Assembly (NCBI GenBank): GCA_020881915.1
Contig: JAJFPB010000001.1
Span: 682,001 to 746,000 of the forward strand
Direction: 5' to 3'
DNA from: Paramyrothecium sp. XJ0827
Taxonomy: Eukaryota > Ascomycota > Sordariomycetes > Hypocreales > Stachybotryaceae
DNA: 64,000 bases
Positions 6,821 through 60,514 of the stretch are shown here, piece after piece. The notes beneath the pieces are model-generated. The model searched no databases. It had not been told where the DNA came from and worked only from the letters and a program-made list of their open reading frames with translations. Position 1 is the stretch's first letter. The number at the start of each line of letters is the position of its first letter. The translations under genes were made by a program, and so were the position numbers.

Positions 6821-9393
6821 TTGTGATTGAACCACTTCTCAAGCGCCTTCTCGCAAGACAGTGTTTGTGAAAGCATTGTACAATTTATACATGCTTATTT
6901 CTTCCTCCATTCTATATGGGATGTAGCCGACGAACCCCTCTATGGTAGGCCTCCAGCACGTGAGGGGCAATTGTCCAACTCGTTGATGGATTTCTATTGG
7001 AGAATTCGTTTGAGGGATCAAAACTACGGTTGGATTTGTTAGCTTTTTTACCAGCTCCTAATCAAGACGCCGAATTTGAGCGTTCGGGCGACAATCCTGA
7101 ATCCAGAAATGAGCAGCAGCAACAAGGAGTATCTGGAAGCTGCTCGGAGATGCCACTTACTGTTCACGCAGTGATTGAATTCTAGCTTTCATTCGCTTAG
7201 CTTCGCGTCACCGATGGATGGCTCTGTCGGCAAAAGATGCTTCCGATATCACAGCACGACTGCATACACGGCATGCAAGTCCAAGGCTAATTGTGGCTGC
7301 AGGACTAATCTAGCTTCGCGAAGCGGTCAAGCTGATGATGCGAGTACGGACCGAGACTCTTCCGCCTCGGCAGTTGAAAGTTGTTTCTGCATGTCTCAAA
7401 AACGGGCCCGGTTGATTCACCTGCTCAAAGAGACACGGCGGGACTGTCCATCGGCCGTACAGGAGAGAATGCTGTTAGGACCGATTATCTGCTGGTGGCA
7501 AATTCTCCAGGAAACTTCTCAGTGCATATTCAATTAGATTTCTTCCCGCCGTACCCATATGCAGGAAGCGCAAATGCCCATTCGTTTAATCTGTGTACTG
7601 TCCTGTTCGTAGATGGCCTCCGTCTTGGATGCGGCACATACCCTATACGACGTACTCGGCACATGGTGGCTGGCTCTGCGCGGCTTGCAAAACACCAGGA
7701 TCAGACGCTCTTCCATTTTGGAAATGGCGGCTTGTGGCATTTCCGATAAAAACGACGACATATCAAAACATCTGCAAGCCGATTGTGACCTGAAGCGCCG
7801 GATTGGGCCCCATTTTAGCACCGGGACGCCTCAAACAATAGCGTCTTATCAATCAGAGTACGGGCGTCGCGGAGAATTGTACAGAAATCGACCCTCTTTT
7901 CTTATCTTTTGTTTTCCTTTCTTTTTTCCCCTCTACCGGACGCCTTGGCCCGGTAGAGGATGCTAAAAAAAATTCCCGCTACGCCATGTCCGTGGCTACC
8001 TACGCCTCACTGTTTTGGCTGTTGGTGCTGGCGGCGGTGGAGACGCTCTTTTTGCGCGAGCCACAATCACAATCTCTTCGTGCGACCGTTGGATGGGGGT
8101 TCTGATAACCGTGCGTGGGTGCAAGAGTCCACAGGGTCAGTCAACCGGGTCGATTCATCTGATCTGAGAAAAGCGGCGAGAGACCAGACGGATAATCGGT
8201 GCGAAGCCAGCGCAGAACGACTGCCGAGTCCATTTGTTATACTGACCAACATAAGCATTGCCAAGGCTTGTGACAATTTCGACGAGCCAATGGAAGCAAA
8301 GCCGTGCCACTTAAAAACTGGGGATCGATCATTCACCACCTAACACGGGCAGTTATTGAACATACATGCCCAGAGGGGCAGTTGGGAGTTGCCCGTGCTG
8401 TGTGCTGTGCTCACCAACACCACCACCACGACCAGCTCCCCCTGCCCTGCACGCAACCCAAGCAGACAATCGTCTTGATCGGTGGCACCGTCGATCTCCC
8501 ACGAGAGGGCAGGAGAATCCGGTTCAGGGGCACGCCGCGGTGCCGTGCTAGCTAGTTAAGTGCCCGACTAACCTAACCCATTCTCTCGTAGGGGCATCAA
8601 GGCACACCCACGCTCTGTCCCTCCGCCCAACTCGTCCAGCCCACCCGCAGCCCAGCCCGGCGGTCGTGGCCCAATGGCGGCGTGCTACGTTTGATTACCG
8701 GTGGAGCCACCAGGGCACCGGCGTGGCGGCGTGGTCGCCTGCGCTCTGGCTCCTCGTGTGCTGCGTCTAGAACGTCCAGGGCGGCCGCATTTGCCCGGGC
8801 ACCATTGGCCCAAGGGCTTCCCCAAGATTTCGAGCCCCGATGCAGCCTAGCCGTGGCTGACTTGGACAGGGGCAAGCAAATCTTCAGCCTCGTATGTATG
8901 CAGGGCCAGTCAATAATTCAGCCAAGCTGCAGCGGCCGGTCGCCAGCTTGGGCCTAGCCGGCATCATGCCACCCCCTGGAGGGATTCCGATAGCCAGGTC
9001 TGTCACTTGTGAGCTATCGTCGGTTCGGAAGAGCCTAGGCCTAGGAGAAAGGGCACCGTACTGTCGGAATAAGTATGGTCTCAGCCGCCGTCACCTAGTG
9101 CCGTCGTTAATTCCTTTTTCCTTTGTGCTGCTGCCGACTGTTCCTTTTCTTGGCAATCCAGCTGGAGTTCCCGACCAGCTGAGCGAGGCAGGTAAATCGA
9201 GCTAAGACTCAGCTGTCAGCCTGGTCCGTGGGGAGCCTCAGTCAGCGCGAGCACGCACGGGAGCTCATATACGAGCTCTGGACCCCCCCCGTTGCGCCGG
9301 TGGACGAGCCCATCCGCAACTTCGGCCAGTTCTCACGGCGTGCCACCAGCGAGCCCATCTCTGCCAAAGCACCTCACAAGGACGGCCGTCGCC
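6821..9393. other. long intergenic stretch with promoters of flanking genes
   Basis: About 2.6 kb between the MATE gene and the WSC gene, which are transcribed away from each other. ORFs of 60-127 codons occur on both strands but show no domain, signal peptide or consistent splice sites. The right part (about 8350-9390) is GC-rich with pyrimidine tracts and probably includes the 5' leader of the gene at 9394. No transposon or RNA gene recognised. Confidence 0.5.
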
Positions 9394-12300
9394 ATGGCAG
9401 TCAGCACAGCAGAGTTCCTTCGCGGCCTCACGGCCATGGTCATGCTATTGATCGTGGCTGTGGGCCGTGTCGAGGGTCTCGCAGATACAGATACAATCAC
9501 ATGGGGTGGCGACAACTCAAGAATCGGCTACTTCCCGTAAGTCTGGCGCAACGCGCATCCCCTTGGGAGCAATGACTGACAATGTCTCCAGGAACAACAA
9601 CATGGACCCTGCCGTGGTCGCCAGCAGCGACTTTGGCCAGGTCTTCAAGGTCGACCTGCCAGGAAACTACAACGGGGAAAAGGAGCGCATCTTTTCGCAG
9701 CCGCTGATCTACACGCCCAAGGGCGGCGACGGAACGCAGTATGTCTATTGGGCCACGGCCCAGAACAACGTCTACAAGATGAACGCCAAGACGGGCGAGA
9801 TCCTCGCTAGCCGAAATCTGCACATCCCATTTGATTCGCGCGATCTTAAAGGCGAGAACCAGGTGACACCAGGGTACGTTGCGAACTGCTGTGGTTGTTC
9901 AATTGCCATGCGCTATGGATGTCGGTTGAGACAAACTCGACCGCATGCTTCTAATCTGATTGAACCAAGGTCAACGTACTGACAGAGAACGCAGTTACTG
10001 CCAGGACATCAACCCCGTCGTCGGCATCATCGGCACCGGCGTCATCGACCCCGACACCGACACCCTCTACCTCTCGTCCAAGACGTACGAGGACCAGTCC
10101 AAGCCCGGCATCCCCCAGGGCCGACCCGCCGGCCGCATCTTCATCCACGCCCTCAACGCCAACGACCTGACGGAGCGGCCCAACTTCCCCATCAACCTCG
10201 AGGGCCTGGCGCCGCGCAACAACCCGGCGCGCACCTTCAACGGCGGCATCCAGAACCAGCGCCCGGGCCTGCTGCACCCCAAGGGCAGCGACTTCATCTA
10301 CGCCGGCTTCGGCTCGCACTGCGTCAACTACAACTTCACGGGCTACGTCATCGGCTGGCACAAGACGACGGGCGAGATCGTCGAGCGCTACGCCACCCAG
10401 GGCGAGGGCGTCGACAGCCCCCGCAAGGGCGCCAGCATCTGGATGTCGGGCGGCGGCATCGCCTCCGACGACCGCGGCTCCATCTTCTTCTCCACCGGCA
10501 ACGGCTACGCCGAGCAGGTCAAGGACATCCCCATCGGCGGACGCACCCCGCCCACCTCGCTCGAGGAGGCCGTCGTCCATATGAATTACAATACGAGCGG
10601 TCAGGTGAGCGTCGTCGATTTCTTCATGCCCGCCAACAAGGGCTACCTCGACGGAGGCGACTTGGATCTCGGCACGAGTCCCCTCGTCATGCTGCCCACC
10701 GAGACCTTCTCCTGCGGCAGCATCAAGCGCATGGGTGTCGTGACAGGCAAGGACAGGCACACGTGGTTCCTGAACCTCGACGACCTGGGCGGATACCGAA
10801 CGGGGCCGAACCTCGGCGACCGCGTCATCGGCGTCTTCAAGAACGAGAACTCGGTGTACGCGGGCGCCGGCGTCTACCCCCTCGAGGGCGGCTATGTCTA
10901 CGTCAACGTCAACGGGTTCCAGTCCAACGTCTTCAAGTTCAACTGCGTCAACAACGTGCCCGCCTTCACCAAGGTCGCCGCGTCGTCGGCCCAGGGCAAC
11001 AACGGCTTCGGCGTCGGCCACGGCGCCGTCACCACGTACAAGGGCCAGTCGGGCACCGGCCTGTTCTGGGTCGTCGACCCCAACAACGCCAACCCCCAGG
11101 GCTGGTCGTTCAGGATCTACGAGACGATCCCCAACGGCACGGACCTGAAGCTCATCAAGGGCTTCCAGGTCAGCGGCATCAACAAGTTCACCAGGGCGCA
11201 GTTTGGCGACGGCATCGTCTACTTTGGCACCTCCCAGGGCGCCGTGTACGCCTACGGAGCGCCCACCGTCCCGGCTCTCGACTGCTCTACCGTGGATGAT
11301 TTTGGCACTGTCGACATCGGTGTCGAGGCTCCTGAGAAGACAGTCACCTGCACGGCCAAGGGCGCCCTGACCGTCGACGCGCTGTCTCTCGCATCTGCAC
11401 ACTTCAGTGTCTCAGGTGTGCCAAGCCTGCCGCTCAGCCTCACCGCACAGTCATCCTTCACCTTCAAGGCAAAGTTCAAGCCCACCAAGGTCGGCGCGCT
11501 CTCGGGCAACGTTGTCCTGCGCACGACCAACAGCGTCGGAGGCTTCGCAAAGACGACCTCCGTCCGTCTTCGGGGCACCGGAGAGAGCGCCAATGCCCTG
11601 CTGACGGTCTCCCCTCAGAGCATAGTATTTGGCCTAATTGCCCAGGGCAGCGAGATTGTTTCCAACAAGGTTGTCTTGGCCAATGACGGCTTGGAGGCAC
11701 TCACCGTCCAGAGCGTTCAGTACTCCGAAACTGGCCCCGATGGGCCCTTCAACAGCGGAAACAGCACGGCCGGAACCACCGTAGGCCTGTTCACGATCAG
11801 CACGTTCCCGACACAACTTGCGGCTCACGCGCAGGAGCTGGTGACTGTGTCCTTCAACCCTACCACCATTGGCGAGTACAAGCTCTACGCCAAGATCACC
11901 ACCAACGGCGGCTCGGCTGTCATCACGGTCACCGGCAGTGTTGGTGGATCTCCATCTGCCCTCATTCAGCTCGAGAAGCCAGACGGCTCCGGTTGGCAGT
12001 CATGGACTCCCGCCTCCACCCAGCTCCTGTCCTTCGGCAACGTCACACAGAACAACAACCGCCGCCTCCGGTTCCGCATCACAAACACAGCGCCAGCCGG
12101 CTCCGTGCCCCTGCTGATTCCCATTTCCAAGCCGCCGTTTGGTGTGCCCGGACTCATCAACACCGTCAACCAGGCTGACCTGGGCGAGGGCTCCGTGATC
12201 CCGGCCGGAGAGTACCTGGAGACCGTCATCGTCTGCACTGCGCCCAAGGCCCAGTGGAACACAGATACCTACACCAACAACGTCGGATGGGTTTTCAACA

Positions 12301-14354
12301 CCAACGACGCCAACATGGGCAAGTTCGAGGTTCCCTTCACCTGCACGGCCGTCGCTCAGCAAGGCGGACCGCTCAACGCCGACGGCCAGGGTGTCTACCG
12401 CTACAAGGGCTGCTTCCGGGAGAACAACCCCGGTCGTCAACTCCAGCAGCAGATGTACGGCAACAACAATAACACGGCAGACATGTGCTTGAAGGCCTGT
12501 GCGGCCAAGGGCTTCGCCTACTGCGGAATGCAGTACCACCGCGAGTGTTGGGGCGGCCCCAAGCCTCCCGTCCAGCAAGTGGCCGAGATCAACTGCAACT
12601 TCGACTGCTCCGGCGACATCCACCAATACTGCGGAGGCAGCGGATACGGCGCCGCTGCCGGCAATGCTCATATCTCCTTGTTTGCCACAAACTCGACCAC
12701 CATCCCCACCAACCCCACGCCCGGCGGCCCGTACGTGAACCCCGGGCTGAACGGCTACAGGAGCATTGGCTGCTACACCGAGGCCACCACGGGCCGGGCG
12801 CTGCCCAACCTGGTTTCGACCAACAACGTCAGGACCGTCGCCTCTTGTATCAACGCCTGCTCCAGGCTCAACTACAAGTACATCGGTCTTGAGTACGGCG
12901 GCGAGTGTTGGTGCGGCAACGCGTTCGGTACCGGCGCCGTGACCGCCCCCATCGGCCAGTGCAGCATCACTTGCCGCGACAACAGCACCGAGTTCTGCGG
13001 TGGTGGCCAGCGTCTCAACGTGTACCAGCGCATCATCACCGGCGGTGATGGTGGCCTGGAGGATCCCACATCGAGCGTTGCTGCTACGTCATCCACATCC
13101 ACATCTATCTCCATTTCAGAGACCTTGTCATCTACCTCAACTGTCTCTACTGACCAGTCGGTTACTTCTTCTACCTCATCTGTCATTCCCTCTTCTGTGT
13201 CATCCAGCGCCGTCACATCTTCTGAGTCGTCCAGTGCCGTCACTTCTTCCACTGCAGCCACATCTTCTTCCGTCTCGTCGTCTTCGACTGCAGTTCCATC
13301 TTCATCCTCATCCTCATCCTCTTCCTCATCCTCATCCAGTGCAGATGTCTCAACGTCTAGCAGCACATCCACATCTACTAGTACCTCTACTTCAACCACC
13401 TCCAGCGCTGCCCCATCATCCACCGTCCCGGCGATCAAGCAAACCGTCGGCGCATACCGATACCAGGGCTGCTACACCGAAAACACACAGGGTGGTCGTT
13501 CCCTGACCGGAAAGTCGTACTACAATGATACCATGACATTGGAGGCTTGTGCCGCCGCTTGCAACGCGTTCACCTTCTGGGGCGCAGAGTACGGCCGGGA
13601 GTGCTACTGCGGCAATGAGCTTCGTGGCAACACGGCACTTGAGAAGGACCAAGCCAAGTGTAGCTTCCTCTGCCCTGGCGACAAGATGACCTACTGTGGT
13701 GCTGGTAGTAGGCTTTCACTTTACAAGTACGAACCGTCACTCAACTCTACGGTGGTCTCTTCATCCTCAGCAGCCGCGAGCTCAACCGCTGCAAGCACAT
13801 CCACTGCCTCTAGCGTTACGAGTTCAGTCTCTGTTTCCTCCGCTTCGTCAAGTGCTGGAGTGGAGTCGGCTTCATCTAGCGCAGCGAGCAGCACAAGCAC
13901 AACATCTTCAGCCGCCTCCAGCTCCTCGGAGGCGTCGTCAACTACCAAGTCCACGTCTACAACCACATCCACGACCCCGTCGGCAACTGTCTCGGCTCCT
14001 CTGTGGCCGGGCAATGTCAACTTCACATACTACGGATGCGTGGCCGGGCCTTCAAATGGCCGCCTGCTGCCAAAGTTGATGTTTGGCGCAAACGATGCGA
14101 CGCATGACAAGTGCCTGGAGGCCTGCTGGATGTACGACTACGCTGGTCTCGAGTATGGTCGCGAGTGCTGGTGCGGTAACGCCCCCATCAACTGGAAGGG
14201 CACTGGCGCGACCGCGGGCTTCAATACCACCGAATCCGAGTGCAAGATGAACTGCTCTGGTGATTCAAAACAGAAGTGTGGAGCCAGCAAGAGGATGAAT
14301 CTTTTCTATTTTGATAAGGAGAAGAGCGCAAAGAGTTCTACGAAAGCAACATAG
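9394..14354 (+). CDS. secreted beta-propeller protein with four WSC domains
   Basis: Three exons: 9394-9536, 9592-9873, 9995-14354 (1594 aa). A signal peptide (hydrophobic run AMVMLLIVAVGRVEG) is followed by WGGDNSRIGYFP and a PQQ-like beta-propeller to about residue 560, with YVYWATAQNNVYKMNAKTGE as a typical blade. About 575-930 holds three Ig-like repeats of the choice-of-anchor-D/ASPM-SPD-2-Hydin type. Four WSC domains begin near residues 940, 1060, 1293 and 1483, each with Y/F-x-GC, ECxCGN-like and CGG/CGA cysteine motifs; in the first the usual ECWCGN reads ECWGGP. Serine/threonine-rich, probably O-mannosylated linkers lie at about 1170-1290 and 1388-1478. WSC domains bind cell-wall glucans. 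No C-terminal helix or GPI signal is evident, so the protein is probably secreted and wall-bound. Catalytic role of the propeller unknown. Confidence 0.85.
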
Positions 14355-60369: not shown

Positions 60370-60377
60370 AAAAAAAA
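60370..60377 (-). terminator. RNA polymerase III terminator of the initiator tRNA gene
   Basis: A run of eight A on the plus strand, hence eight T on the transcribed sense strand, nine bases beyond the tRNA 3' end. This is the standard Pol III stop. Confidence 0.8.
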
Positions 60378-60386
60378 GAATTGTGC

Positions 60387-60514
60387 TAGCAATTGCACGT
60401 TTCGATCGTGCGACCTCCGGGTTATGAGCCCGGCTGATGAATGAGTTAGCGTCGATGTTGGTGGATCCGAATGATCGGGTCAGACATACCGCGCTTCCAC
60501 TGCGCCAAATTGCT
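60387..60514 (-). tRNA. initiator tRNA-Met (CAU) with an intron at position 26/27
   Basis: Exons 60490-60514 (25 nt) and 60387-60433 (47 nt) give a 72-nt tRNA with perfect stems: acceptor AGCAATT with AATTGCT, D stem GCGC/GCGC, anticodon stem CCGGG/CCCGG around CTCATAA (anticodon CAT), and T stem GCACG/CGTGC. Initiator marks are the A1-T72 pair, three G-C pairs above the anticodon loop (GGG/CCC) and the T-loop ATCGAAA with A54 and A60. Box A (TGGCGCAGTGG) and box B (GATCGAAAC) are intact, and a T8 terminator follows. The 56-nt insert 60434-60489 lies between G26 and C27, not at 37/38 where eukaryotic tRNA introns belong. With the insert in place the tRNA core could not fold normally. Confidence 0.88.
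60434..60489 (-). other. spliceosome-type intron inside the initiator tRNA gene
   Basis: 56 nt starting GTATGT, with a canonical branch site GCTAAC, 12 nt after the branch A to a final CAG. All three signals and the length equal those of the protein-gene introns in this window. Inside is a small hairpin (CCGA-TCAT-TCGG). Removing exactly this segment restores the cloverleaf. Splicing itself is not shown by the sequence. Confidence 0.75.

What the first reader, a model, noticed from the sequence alone, without database searches (positions are those of the whole stretch)
60387..60514. Initiator tRNA-Met gene interrupted by a spliceosomal-type intron at position 26/27
Seen: a perfect 72-nt initiator cloverleaf, intact box A and B and a T8 terminator, but 56 extra bases between G26 and C27. 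The insert starts GTATGT, has branch site GCTAAC and ends CAG, just like the mRNA introns of this genome. Known: eukaryotic nuclear tRNA introns sit at 37/38 and are cut by the tRNA endonuclease, which measures from the mature tRNA body; an intron at 26/27 breaks that body. Spliceosomal introns are known in some Pol III RNAs (U6 of certain yeasts). Inference: this tRNA may mature through the spliceosome, tying translation start to mRNA splicing. I do not know of a description of this.
Basis: partly seen in the sequence, partly recalled or inferred. Interest (0 to 1): 0.93.

Follow-up and report, generated by a model that had tools for sequence, protein, structure and literature searches.

The report
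Start tRNA gene with mRNA-type intron
A mould carries two copies of a gene for the tRNA that starts protein synthesis, each interrupted at an unusual place by an intron that looks like those cut from messenger RNA, so this tRNA probably has to pass through the mRNA splicing machine; three other, uninterrupted start-tRNA genes mean that it is not the only source.

Summary
On the minus strand (60514..60387) lies an initiator tRNA-Met with 21 of 21 Watson-Crick pairs once a 56-nt insert at 26/27 (GTATGT...GCTAAC...CAG) is left out. A second copy elsewhere has identical exons (72 of 72) and a diverged 56-nt intron: 6 of 6 bases kept at the 5' splice site, 19 of 20 at the branch/3' splice site end, 16 of 30 between. 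Two U3 snoRNA genes of this genome carry 72-nt introns with like signals and the same conservation pattern. A bulge-helix-bulge for tRNA endonuclease is no better than in shuffled inserts. I conclude: functional genes with a spliceosomal intron, probably Pol III-transcribed; no RNA evidence was available. Against the strongest reading, three intron-less initiator-type genes of another sequence (55 of 72 identical) exist, so dependence of all translation start on splicing is not supported. Ten searches of an open-access library showed no published spliceosomal intron in a tRNA; a 2017 paper names only U3 and U6 as often interrupted. No other fungal genome could be compared. The genome is Stachybotryaceae-like.

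The parts
60490..60514 (-). exon 1 of initiator tRNA-Met: acceptor 5' strand, D arm, G26
   Evidence: identical in second copy
60434..60489 (-). 56-nt insert at 26/27, GTATGT...GCTAAC...CAG, spliceosomal-type intron
60484..60489 (-). 5' splice site GTATGT (6 of 6 in second copy)
   Evidence: place read from the intron's first base at 60489
60445..60450 (-). branch site GCTAAC (GCTAAT in second copy), branch A 12 nt before the last G
60434..60436 (-). 3' splice site CAG
60387..60433 (-). exon 2: anticodon arm (CAT), variable loop, T arm with A54, acceptor 3' strand, A73
   Evidence: identical in second copy
60497..60507 (-). box A-like internal promoter TGGCGCAGTGG
60399..60407 (-). box B-like internal promoter GATCGAAAC
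60370..60377 (-). T8 run, Pol III-type terminator, also present behind the second copy

Best explanation
These are two working initiator tRNA-Met genes of a filamentous ascomycete (Stachybotryaceae-like). Shown from sequence: intact promoter boxes, terminator, and exons that join to a perfect initiator cloverleaf; an insert at 26/27 with complete U2-type splice signals, conserved between paralogues where the spliceosome reads and free in between. Inferred: Pol III transcribes a precursor of roughly 140-150 nt, the spliceosome removes the 56-nt intron as a lariat, and RNase P, RNase Z and CCA addition finish the tRNA. This is the U6/U3 way (spliceosomal intron in a small structured RNA) applied to a tRNA, beside the canonical tRNA endonuclease route. 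It supplies one of two initiator isodecoders; the other comes from three intron-less genes.
For: Exons 72 of 72 identical in two copies while introns are 41 of 56; leader and trailer are alike next to the gene (8 of 10, 18 of 20) and fall away outward (24 of 80 upstream, 37 of 80 downstream, ungapped); at the intron's rate of change the chance of no exon difference is 1.8e-10. Within the intron 6 of 6 at the 5' splice site, 16 of 30 in the middle, 19 of 20 at the branch/3' splice site end, the one difference being CTAAC to CTAAT. Signals fit the fungal consensus GTRWGT, RCTRAY, YAG, branch-to-acceptor 6-36 nt given in PMC5832005. Random 56-mers carry the loose signals in 8 of 2,000,000. Both U3 genes found have 72-nt introns with GTATG(T/C), GCTAAC, CAG and the same pattern (5 of 6, 23 of 46, 19 of 20). 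Bulge-helix-bulge score 8 of 12 pairs in both copies, reached by 515 and 629 of 2000 shuffled inserts. No Rfam match at this place, group I/II included.
Against: No RNA data: transcription by Pol III and splicing are both inferred. Only two paralogues in one genome could be compared; no other fungus was reachable. Three intron-less initiator-type genes may make these genes dispensable. A U6 gene could not be found, so splicing of another Pol III transcript in this very fungus is unshown. Copy B (and at small cost copy A) can hold the whole cloverleaf with the insert looped out, so an unspliced product is conceivable. Exon identity could partly reflect gene conversion. The window's candidate mRNA introns mostly use CTGAY, not CTAAC.
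Confidence: 0.8

Rival explanations
1. Dead copies (pseudogenes): an initiator tRNA gene was broken by an insertion, duplicated, and the intron-less genes do the work.
For: Three intron-less initiator-type genes exist; PMC4090602 (passages) says that insertions in one of many synonymous nuclear tRNA genes are supposed to mark pseudogenes.
Against: Exons 72 of 72 identical against 41 of 56 in the intron; terminator kept in both; changes in the intron spare the splice signals; no uninterrupted gene of this isodecoder was found in the assembly.
Confidence: 0.07
2. The insert is removed by the tRNA splicing endonuclease at a non-canonical position, as in Cyanidioschyzon and nucleomorphs.
For: Some eukaryotic splicing endonucleases recognise introns at non-canonical positions (PMC4090602 passages).
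Against: No bulge-helix-bulge better than shuffles by my simple pair count (relaxed half motifs were not scored); GT, branch site and AG are conserved instead of pairing; 26/27 lies outside what the fungal endonuclease measures (recalled knowledge, not tested).
Confidence: 0.04
3. The insert is never removed: the genes make a stable 128-nt tRNA-like RNA with an extra arm, with another function.
For: Copy B's predicted fold keeps the whole cloverleaf with the insert looped out (free -39.0, enforced -39.0 kcal/mol); copy A -36.0 enforced against -38.7 free.
Against: Does not explain conserved GTATGT, branch site and CAG with a fast-changing middle, nor the kept anticodon and initiator hallmarks.
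Confidence: 0.07

Closest known systems
U6 snRNA genes with mRNA-type introns (fission yeast and other fungi)
   Same: Small RNA gene interrupted by an intron spliced by the pre-mRNA machinery (text and reference titles in PMC5832005, passages); U6 is a Pol III RNA (abstract of PMC10484740 in a listing)
   Different: U6 is part of the spliceosome itself; here it is a tRNA, needing RNase P/Z and aminoacylation
U3 snoRNA genes with introns in Pezizomycotina (Canzler et al. 2017, PMC5832005)
   Same: Same splice signals; two U3 genes of this genome have them; paralogues with conserved ends and diverged middle
   Different: snoRNA, intron near the 5' end, no tRNA endonuclease alternative; PMC5832005 calls U3 a Pol III gene, from memory it is Pol II in yeast
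Canonical nuclear tRNA introns (37/38, TSEN)
   Same: Intron in a nuclear tRNA gene
   Different: Position 26/27, GT-branch-AG signals, no bulge-helix-bulge above shuffles
Non-canonical tRNA introns of Cyanidioschyzon merolae, cryptophyte nucleomorphs and archaea (PMC4090602, passages)
   Same: Intron in the tRNA body away from 37/38
   Different: Those rest on bulge-helix-bulge motifs or, in nucleomorphs, are 3-24 nt long with unknown removal
Spliceosomal introns in nuclear rRNA genes of ascomycetes (recalled, not looked up)
   Same: Spliceosomal intron in a translation RNA gene
   Different: Pol I transcript, rRNA

Membership tests
U2-type spliceosomal intron | GT-AG ends with GTRWGT donor and YAG acceptor | tested here: met
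   GTATGT and CAG in both copies; consensus from PMC5832005
U2-type spliceosomal intron | Branch site RCTRAY 6-36 nt before the acceptor | tested here: met
   GCTAAC / GCTAAT, branch A 12 nt before the last G
U2-type spliceosomal intron | Removed by the spliceosome through a lariat | not testable with these tools
   no RNA data
Eukaryotic initiator tRNA-Met | CAT anticodon, A1:U72, three G-C pairs in the anticodon stem, A54 and A60 | tested here: met
   read from the exons; hallmark list recalled, A1:U72 also in PMC8450103 and A54 in PMC3978253 (passages)
Pol III type 2 gene | box A, box B, T-run terminator | tested here: met
   (by sequence only; transcription not testable)
TSEN-type tRNA intron | intron at 37/38 | tested here: not met
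   insert at 26/27
TSEN-type tRNA intron | bulge-helix-bulge at the splice sites | tested here: not met
   best 8 of 12 pairs, reached by 515 and 629 of 2000 shuffles
Group I / II self-splicing intron | match to family model | tested here: not met
   no Rfam match at this place; 56 nt
tRNA pseudogene | exons decay like the insert and flanks | tested here: not met
   72 of 72 against 41 of 56

The most novel reading that the evidence does not exclude
In this lineage one of two initiator tRNA isodecoders is made only through the mRNA spliceosome, so that the supply of start tRNA rises and falls with splicing capacity, a direct link between pre-mRNA splicing and translation initiation.
Probability: 0.25. 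Interest if true: 0.95.

Novelty: new variant of a known kind. Interest (0 to 1): 0.85.

Why it matters
tRNA introns and mRNA introns are treated as separate systems with separate enzymes. A tRNA whose intron bears only spliceosomal signals would show that the spliceosome can serve tRNA maturation and that a precursor with an opened tRNA body can be spliced before decay pathways act. The two tools run here (ARAGORN, Rfam's tRNA model) miss the gene, so more such genes may be hidden in fungal genomes.

Tried and rejected
Relatives: intron-bearing patterns gave 0 hits in viral contigs and 0 in genome contigs, collections of viral and prokaryotic DNA; an intron-less pattern gave one IMG/VR contig with its own tRNA-Met (L005), not relevant. 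Conservation across fungi is untested. The one outside datum seen: both tRNA-Met genes listed for Aspergillus niger in Table 1 of PMC6108506 are 72 nt with intron length 0 (2 of 2); the table does not say whether they are initiators.

Elongator tRNA-Met: a pattern for CAT tRNAs gave 11 places, 5 of them initiator-type (2 interrupted, 3 intron-less) and 6 in which ARAGORN found no tRNA; 18 stretches chosen from the 63 hits held 21 tRNAs, none of them Met. The elongator was not found; a canonical intron may be the reason, which is a guess. The Rfam tRNA search scored 63 of 1480 candidates, and its list lacks the three intron-less initiator genes, so no tRNA census exists. The short pattern (231 places) was too common to use.

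U6 snRNA: family search, three patterns (the last gave two places without a U6 match) and a DNA query failed; nothing is concluded.

Introner-like element: the 141-base search found only the two copies; as that search skips very common words, a high-copy relative is unlikely rather than excluded.

mRNA intron statistics: the broad pattern gave 29 hits against 24 in the reversed window, too weak to use.

Full report
WHAT IS THERE. The finding lies on the minus strand. Read 5' to 3', 25 nt (60514-60490) hold the acceptor 5' strand, the D arm and G26. Then come 56 nt (60489-60434) and 47 nt (60433-60387) with the anticodon arm (CAT), variable loop, T arm and acceptor 3' strand. The 72 exon bases pair in 21 of 21 positions of the cloverleaf; the free minimum-energy fold of the joined exons differs from the cloverleaf by only 0.2 kcal/mol (-27.0 against -26.8). 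They show A1:U72, three G-C pairs in the anticodon stem, A54 and A60, which are initiator hallmarks (list recalled; A1:U72 also in PMC8450103, A54 in PMC3978253, passages). Box A- and box B-like sequences and a T8 run are intact. ARAGORN (bacterial setting) and Rfam's tRNA model miss the gene in the window and in the loci of both copies.

WHOSE GENOME. The window is part of a 51.8-Mb assembly in 15 contigs. The glycoside hydrolase 3 gene beside the tRNA is 94% identical to a Paramyrothecium foliicola protein and 83% to one of Stachybotrys chartarum; P. foliicola belongs to Stachybotryaceae, Hypocreales. The species is not known.

A SECOND COPY. The search found one other copy, at C11:2574886-2575013, minus strand. 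Its exons are identical (72 of 72). Its intron is also 56 nt but shares only 41 of 56 bases: 6 of 6 at the donor, 16 of 30 in the middle, 19 of 20 at the branch-acceptor end. The one difference in that last part turns CTAAC into CTAAT, which the fungal branch consensus RCTRAY allows. Next to the gene the flanks are alike (8 of the first 10 upstream, 18 of the first 20 downstream with the T8 run); further out they are not (24 of 80 upstream, 37 of 80 downstream in all, ungapped). If the exons changed as fast as the intron, no difference in 72 would have a chance of 1.8e-10. Gene conversion could help to keep exons alike, but would have to stop at both intron borders. I take this as selection on the joined tRNA.

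THE INTRON IS OF SPLICEOSOMAL KIND. GTATGT, GCTAAC/T and CAG fit GTRWGT, RCTRAY and YAG, and the branch A lies 12 nt before the last G. In 2,000,000 random 56-mers, 8 had the loose signals and none the strict ones. A matched control comes from the same genome: both U3 snoRNA genes found (2 matches) have a 72-nt intron with GTATGT or GTATGC, GCTAAC and CAG, and conservation of 5 of 6, 23 of 46 and 19 of 20 in the same three parts. According to PMC5832005 (section 3.2 and passages) fungal U3 introns are normal spliceosomal introns, with experimental evidence in S. cerevisiae and N. crassa. U3 is a control for splice signals only, not for Pol III. Among the mRNA-like candidates of the window (8 hits, 6 distinct acceptor sites, unverified) lengths are 50-80 nt and one has GTATGT, but 5 of 6 use CTGAY and none CTAAC.

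NOT THE USUAL tRNA INTRON. Most eukaryotic tRNA introns lie one base 3' of the anticodon; non-canonical ones are known in C. merolae, where bulge-helix-bulge motifs seem decisive, and in nucleomorphs, where they are 3-24 nt and their removal is unexplained (PMC4090602, passages). Here the best bulge-helix-bulge arrangement by my simple count has 8 of 12 pairs in each copy, reached by 515 and 629 of 2000 shuffled inserts; relaxed half motifs were not scored.

RESULT AGAINST THE STRONG READING. A search with the joined exons found three more genes, at C12:3217879, C8:1804714 and C7:3266358, uninterrupted and also of initiator type (A1:U72, A54, A60, 21 of 21 pairs), 55 of 72 identical to the interrupted type, with 7 base pairs changed on both sides and none on one side. 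The CAT-loop pattern gave the same five genes among 11 places. So at least two initiator isodecoders exist: two interrupted genes and three uninterrupted ones. From memory, the interrupted type looks like the N. crassa, yeast and human initiators and the uninterrupted type more like that of S. pombe; this was not tested. The elongator tRNA-Met was not found, so how the CAT tRNAs share the work is open. Translation start as a whole need not depend on splicing.

MECHANISM. Most likely Pol III makes a precursor ending in the T8 run, the spliceosome removes the intron, and ordinary tRNA enzymes finish it. Shown: anatomy and conservation pattern. Inferred: polymerase, order of steps, spliceosome. 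Spliceosomal splicing of a small RNA precursor has a precedent in fission yeast U6 (text and reference titles in PMC5832005), and U6 is a Pol III RNA (abstract of PMC10484740 in a listing). Folding suggests that copy B, and at small cost copy A, could hold the cloverleaf with the insert looped out. That would let end processing go ahead before splicing; it also leaves room for a stable unspliced RNA, held as a rival.

NOVELTY. Ten paper searches in the open-access library, of which I saw the listings and read parts of seven papers (PMC4090602, PMC3978253, PMC6108506, PMC13130702, PMC4022394, PMC8450103, PMC5832005), showed no description of a spliceosomal intron in a tRNA gene. In 2017 PMC5832005 stated that U3 and U6 are so far the only small structured RNAs known to be often interrupted by an intron. 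The library lacks most subscription papers (PMC4829304 on U6 introns was not held), so absence is not proof. I rate it a new variant of a known kind: spliceosomal introns in small RNA genes, now in a tRNA.

CHANGES ON CHECKING.

Noticed in passing
G000 C12:3217879, C8:1804714, C7:3266358 (L008-L010): Three intron-less initiator-type tRNA-Met genes of a second isodecoder; the C12 and C7 copies also share a similar upstream stretch (CGATATCCATAT...CCGAATATCGTGGCCC) not seen before the C8 copy, possibly an upstream element or a more recent duplication.
   Followed up: partly
L044, L045 (U3 snoRNA genes, G000 C7:6044959 and C15:2054448): Both U3 genes carry a 72-nt spliceosomal-type intron; Rfam's Fungi_U3 hit takes up its 3' part as if it were the 5' end of the RNA.
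   Followed up: yes
   Followed up: partly
G000 contig C6, e.g. 6579 and 37382: Many tRNA hits occur in pairs about 30.8 kb apart, as if a mitochondrial genome were present twice in tandem in this contig; an assembly artefact is possible. That C6 is mitochondrial is an inference.
   Followed up: no
window 60434-60489 and copy B: The middle of both introns can form a small hairpin between donor and branch site, with partly different bases in the two copies.
   Followed up: no
window 9960-14354: Long open frame with WSC domains; the stretch 8001-12000 has G+C 0.61.
   Followed up: no
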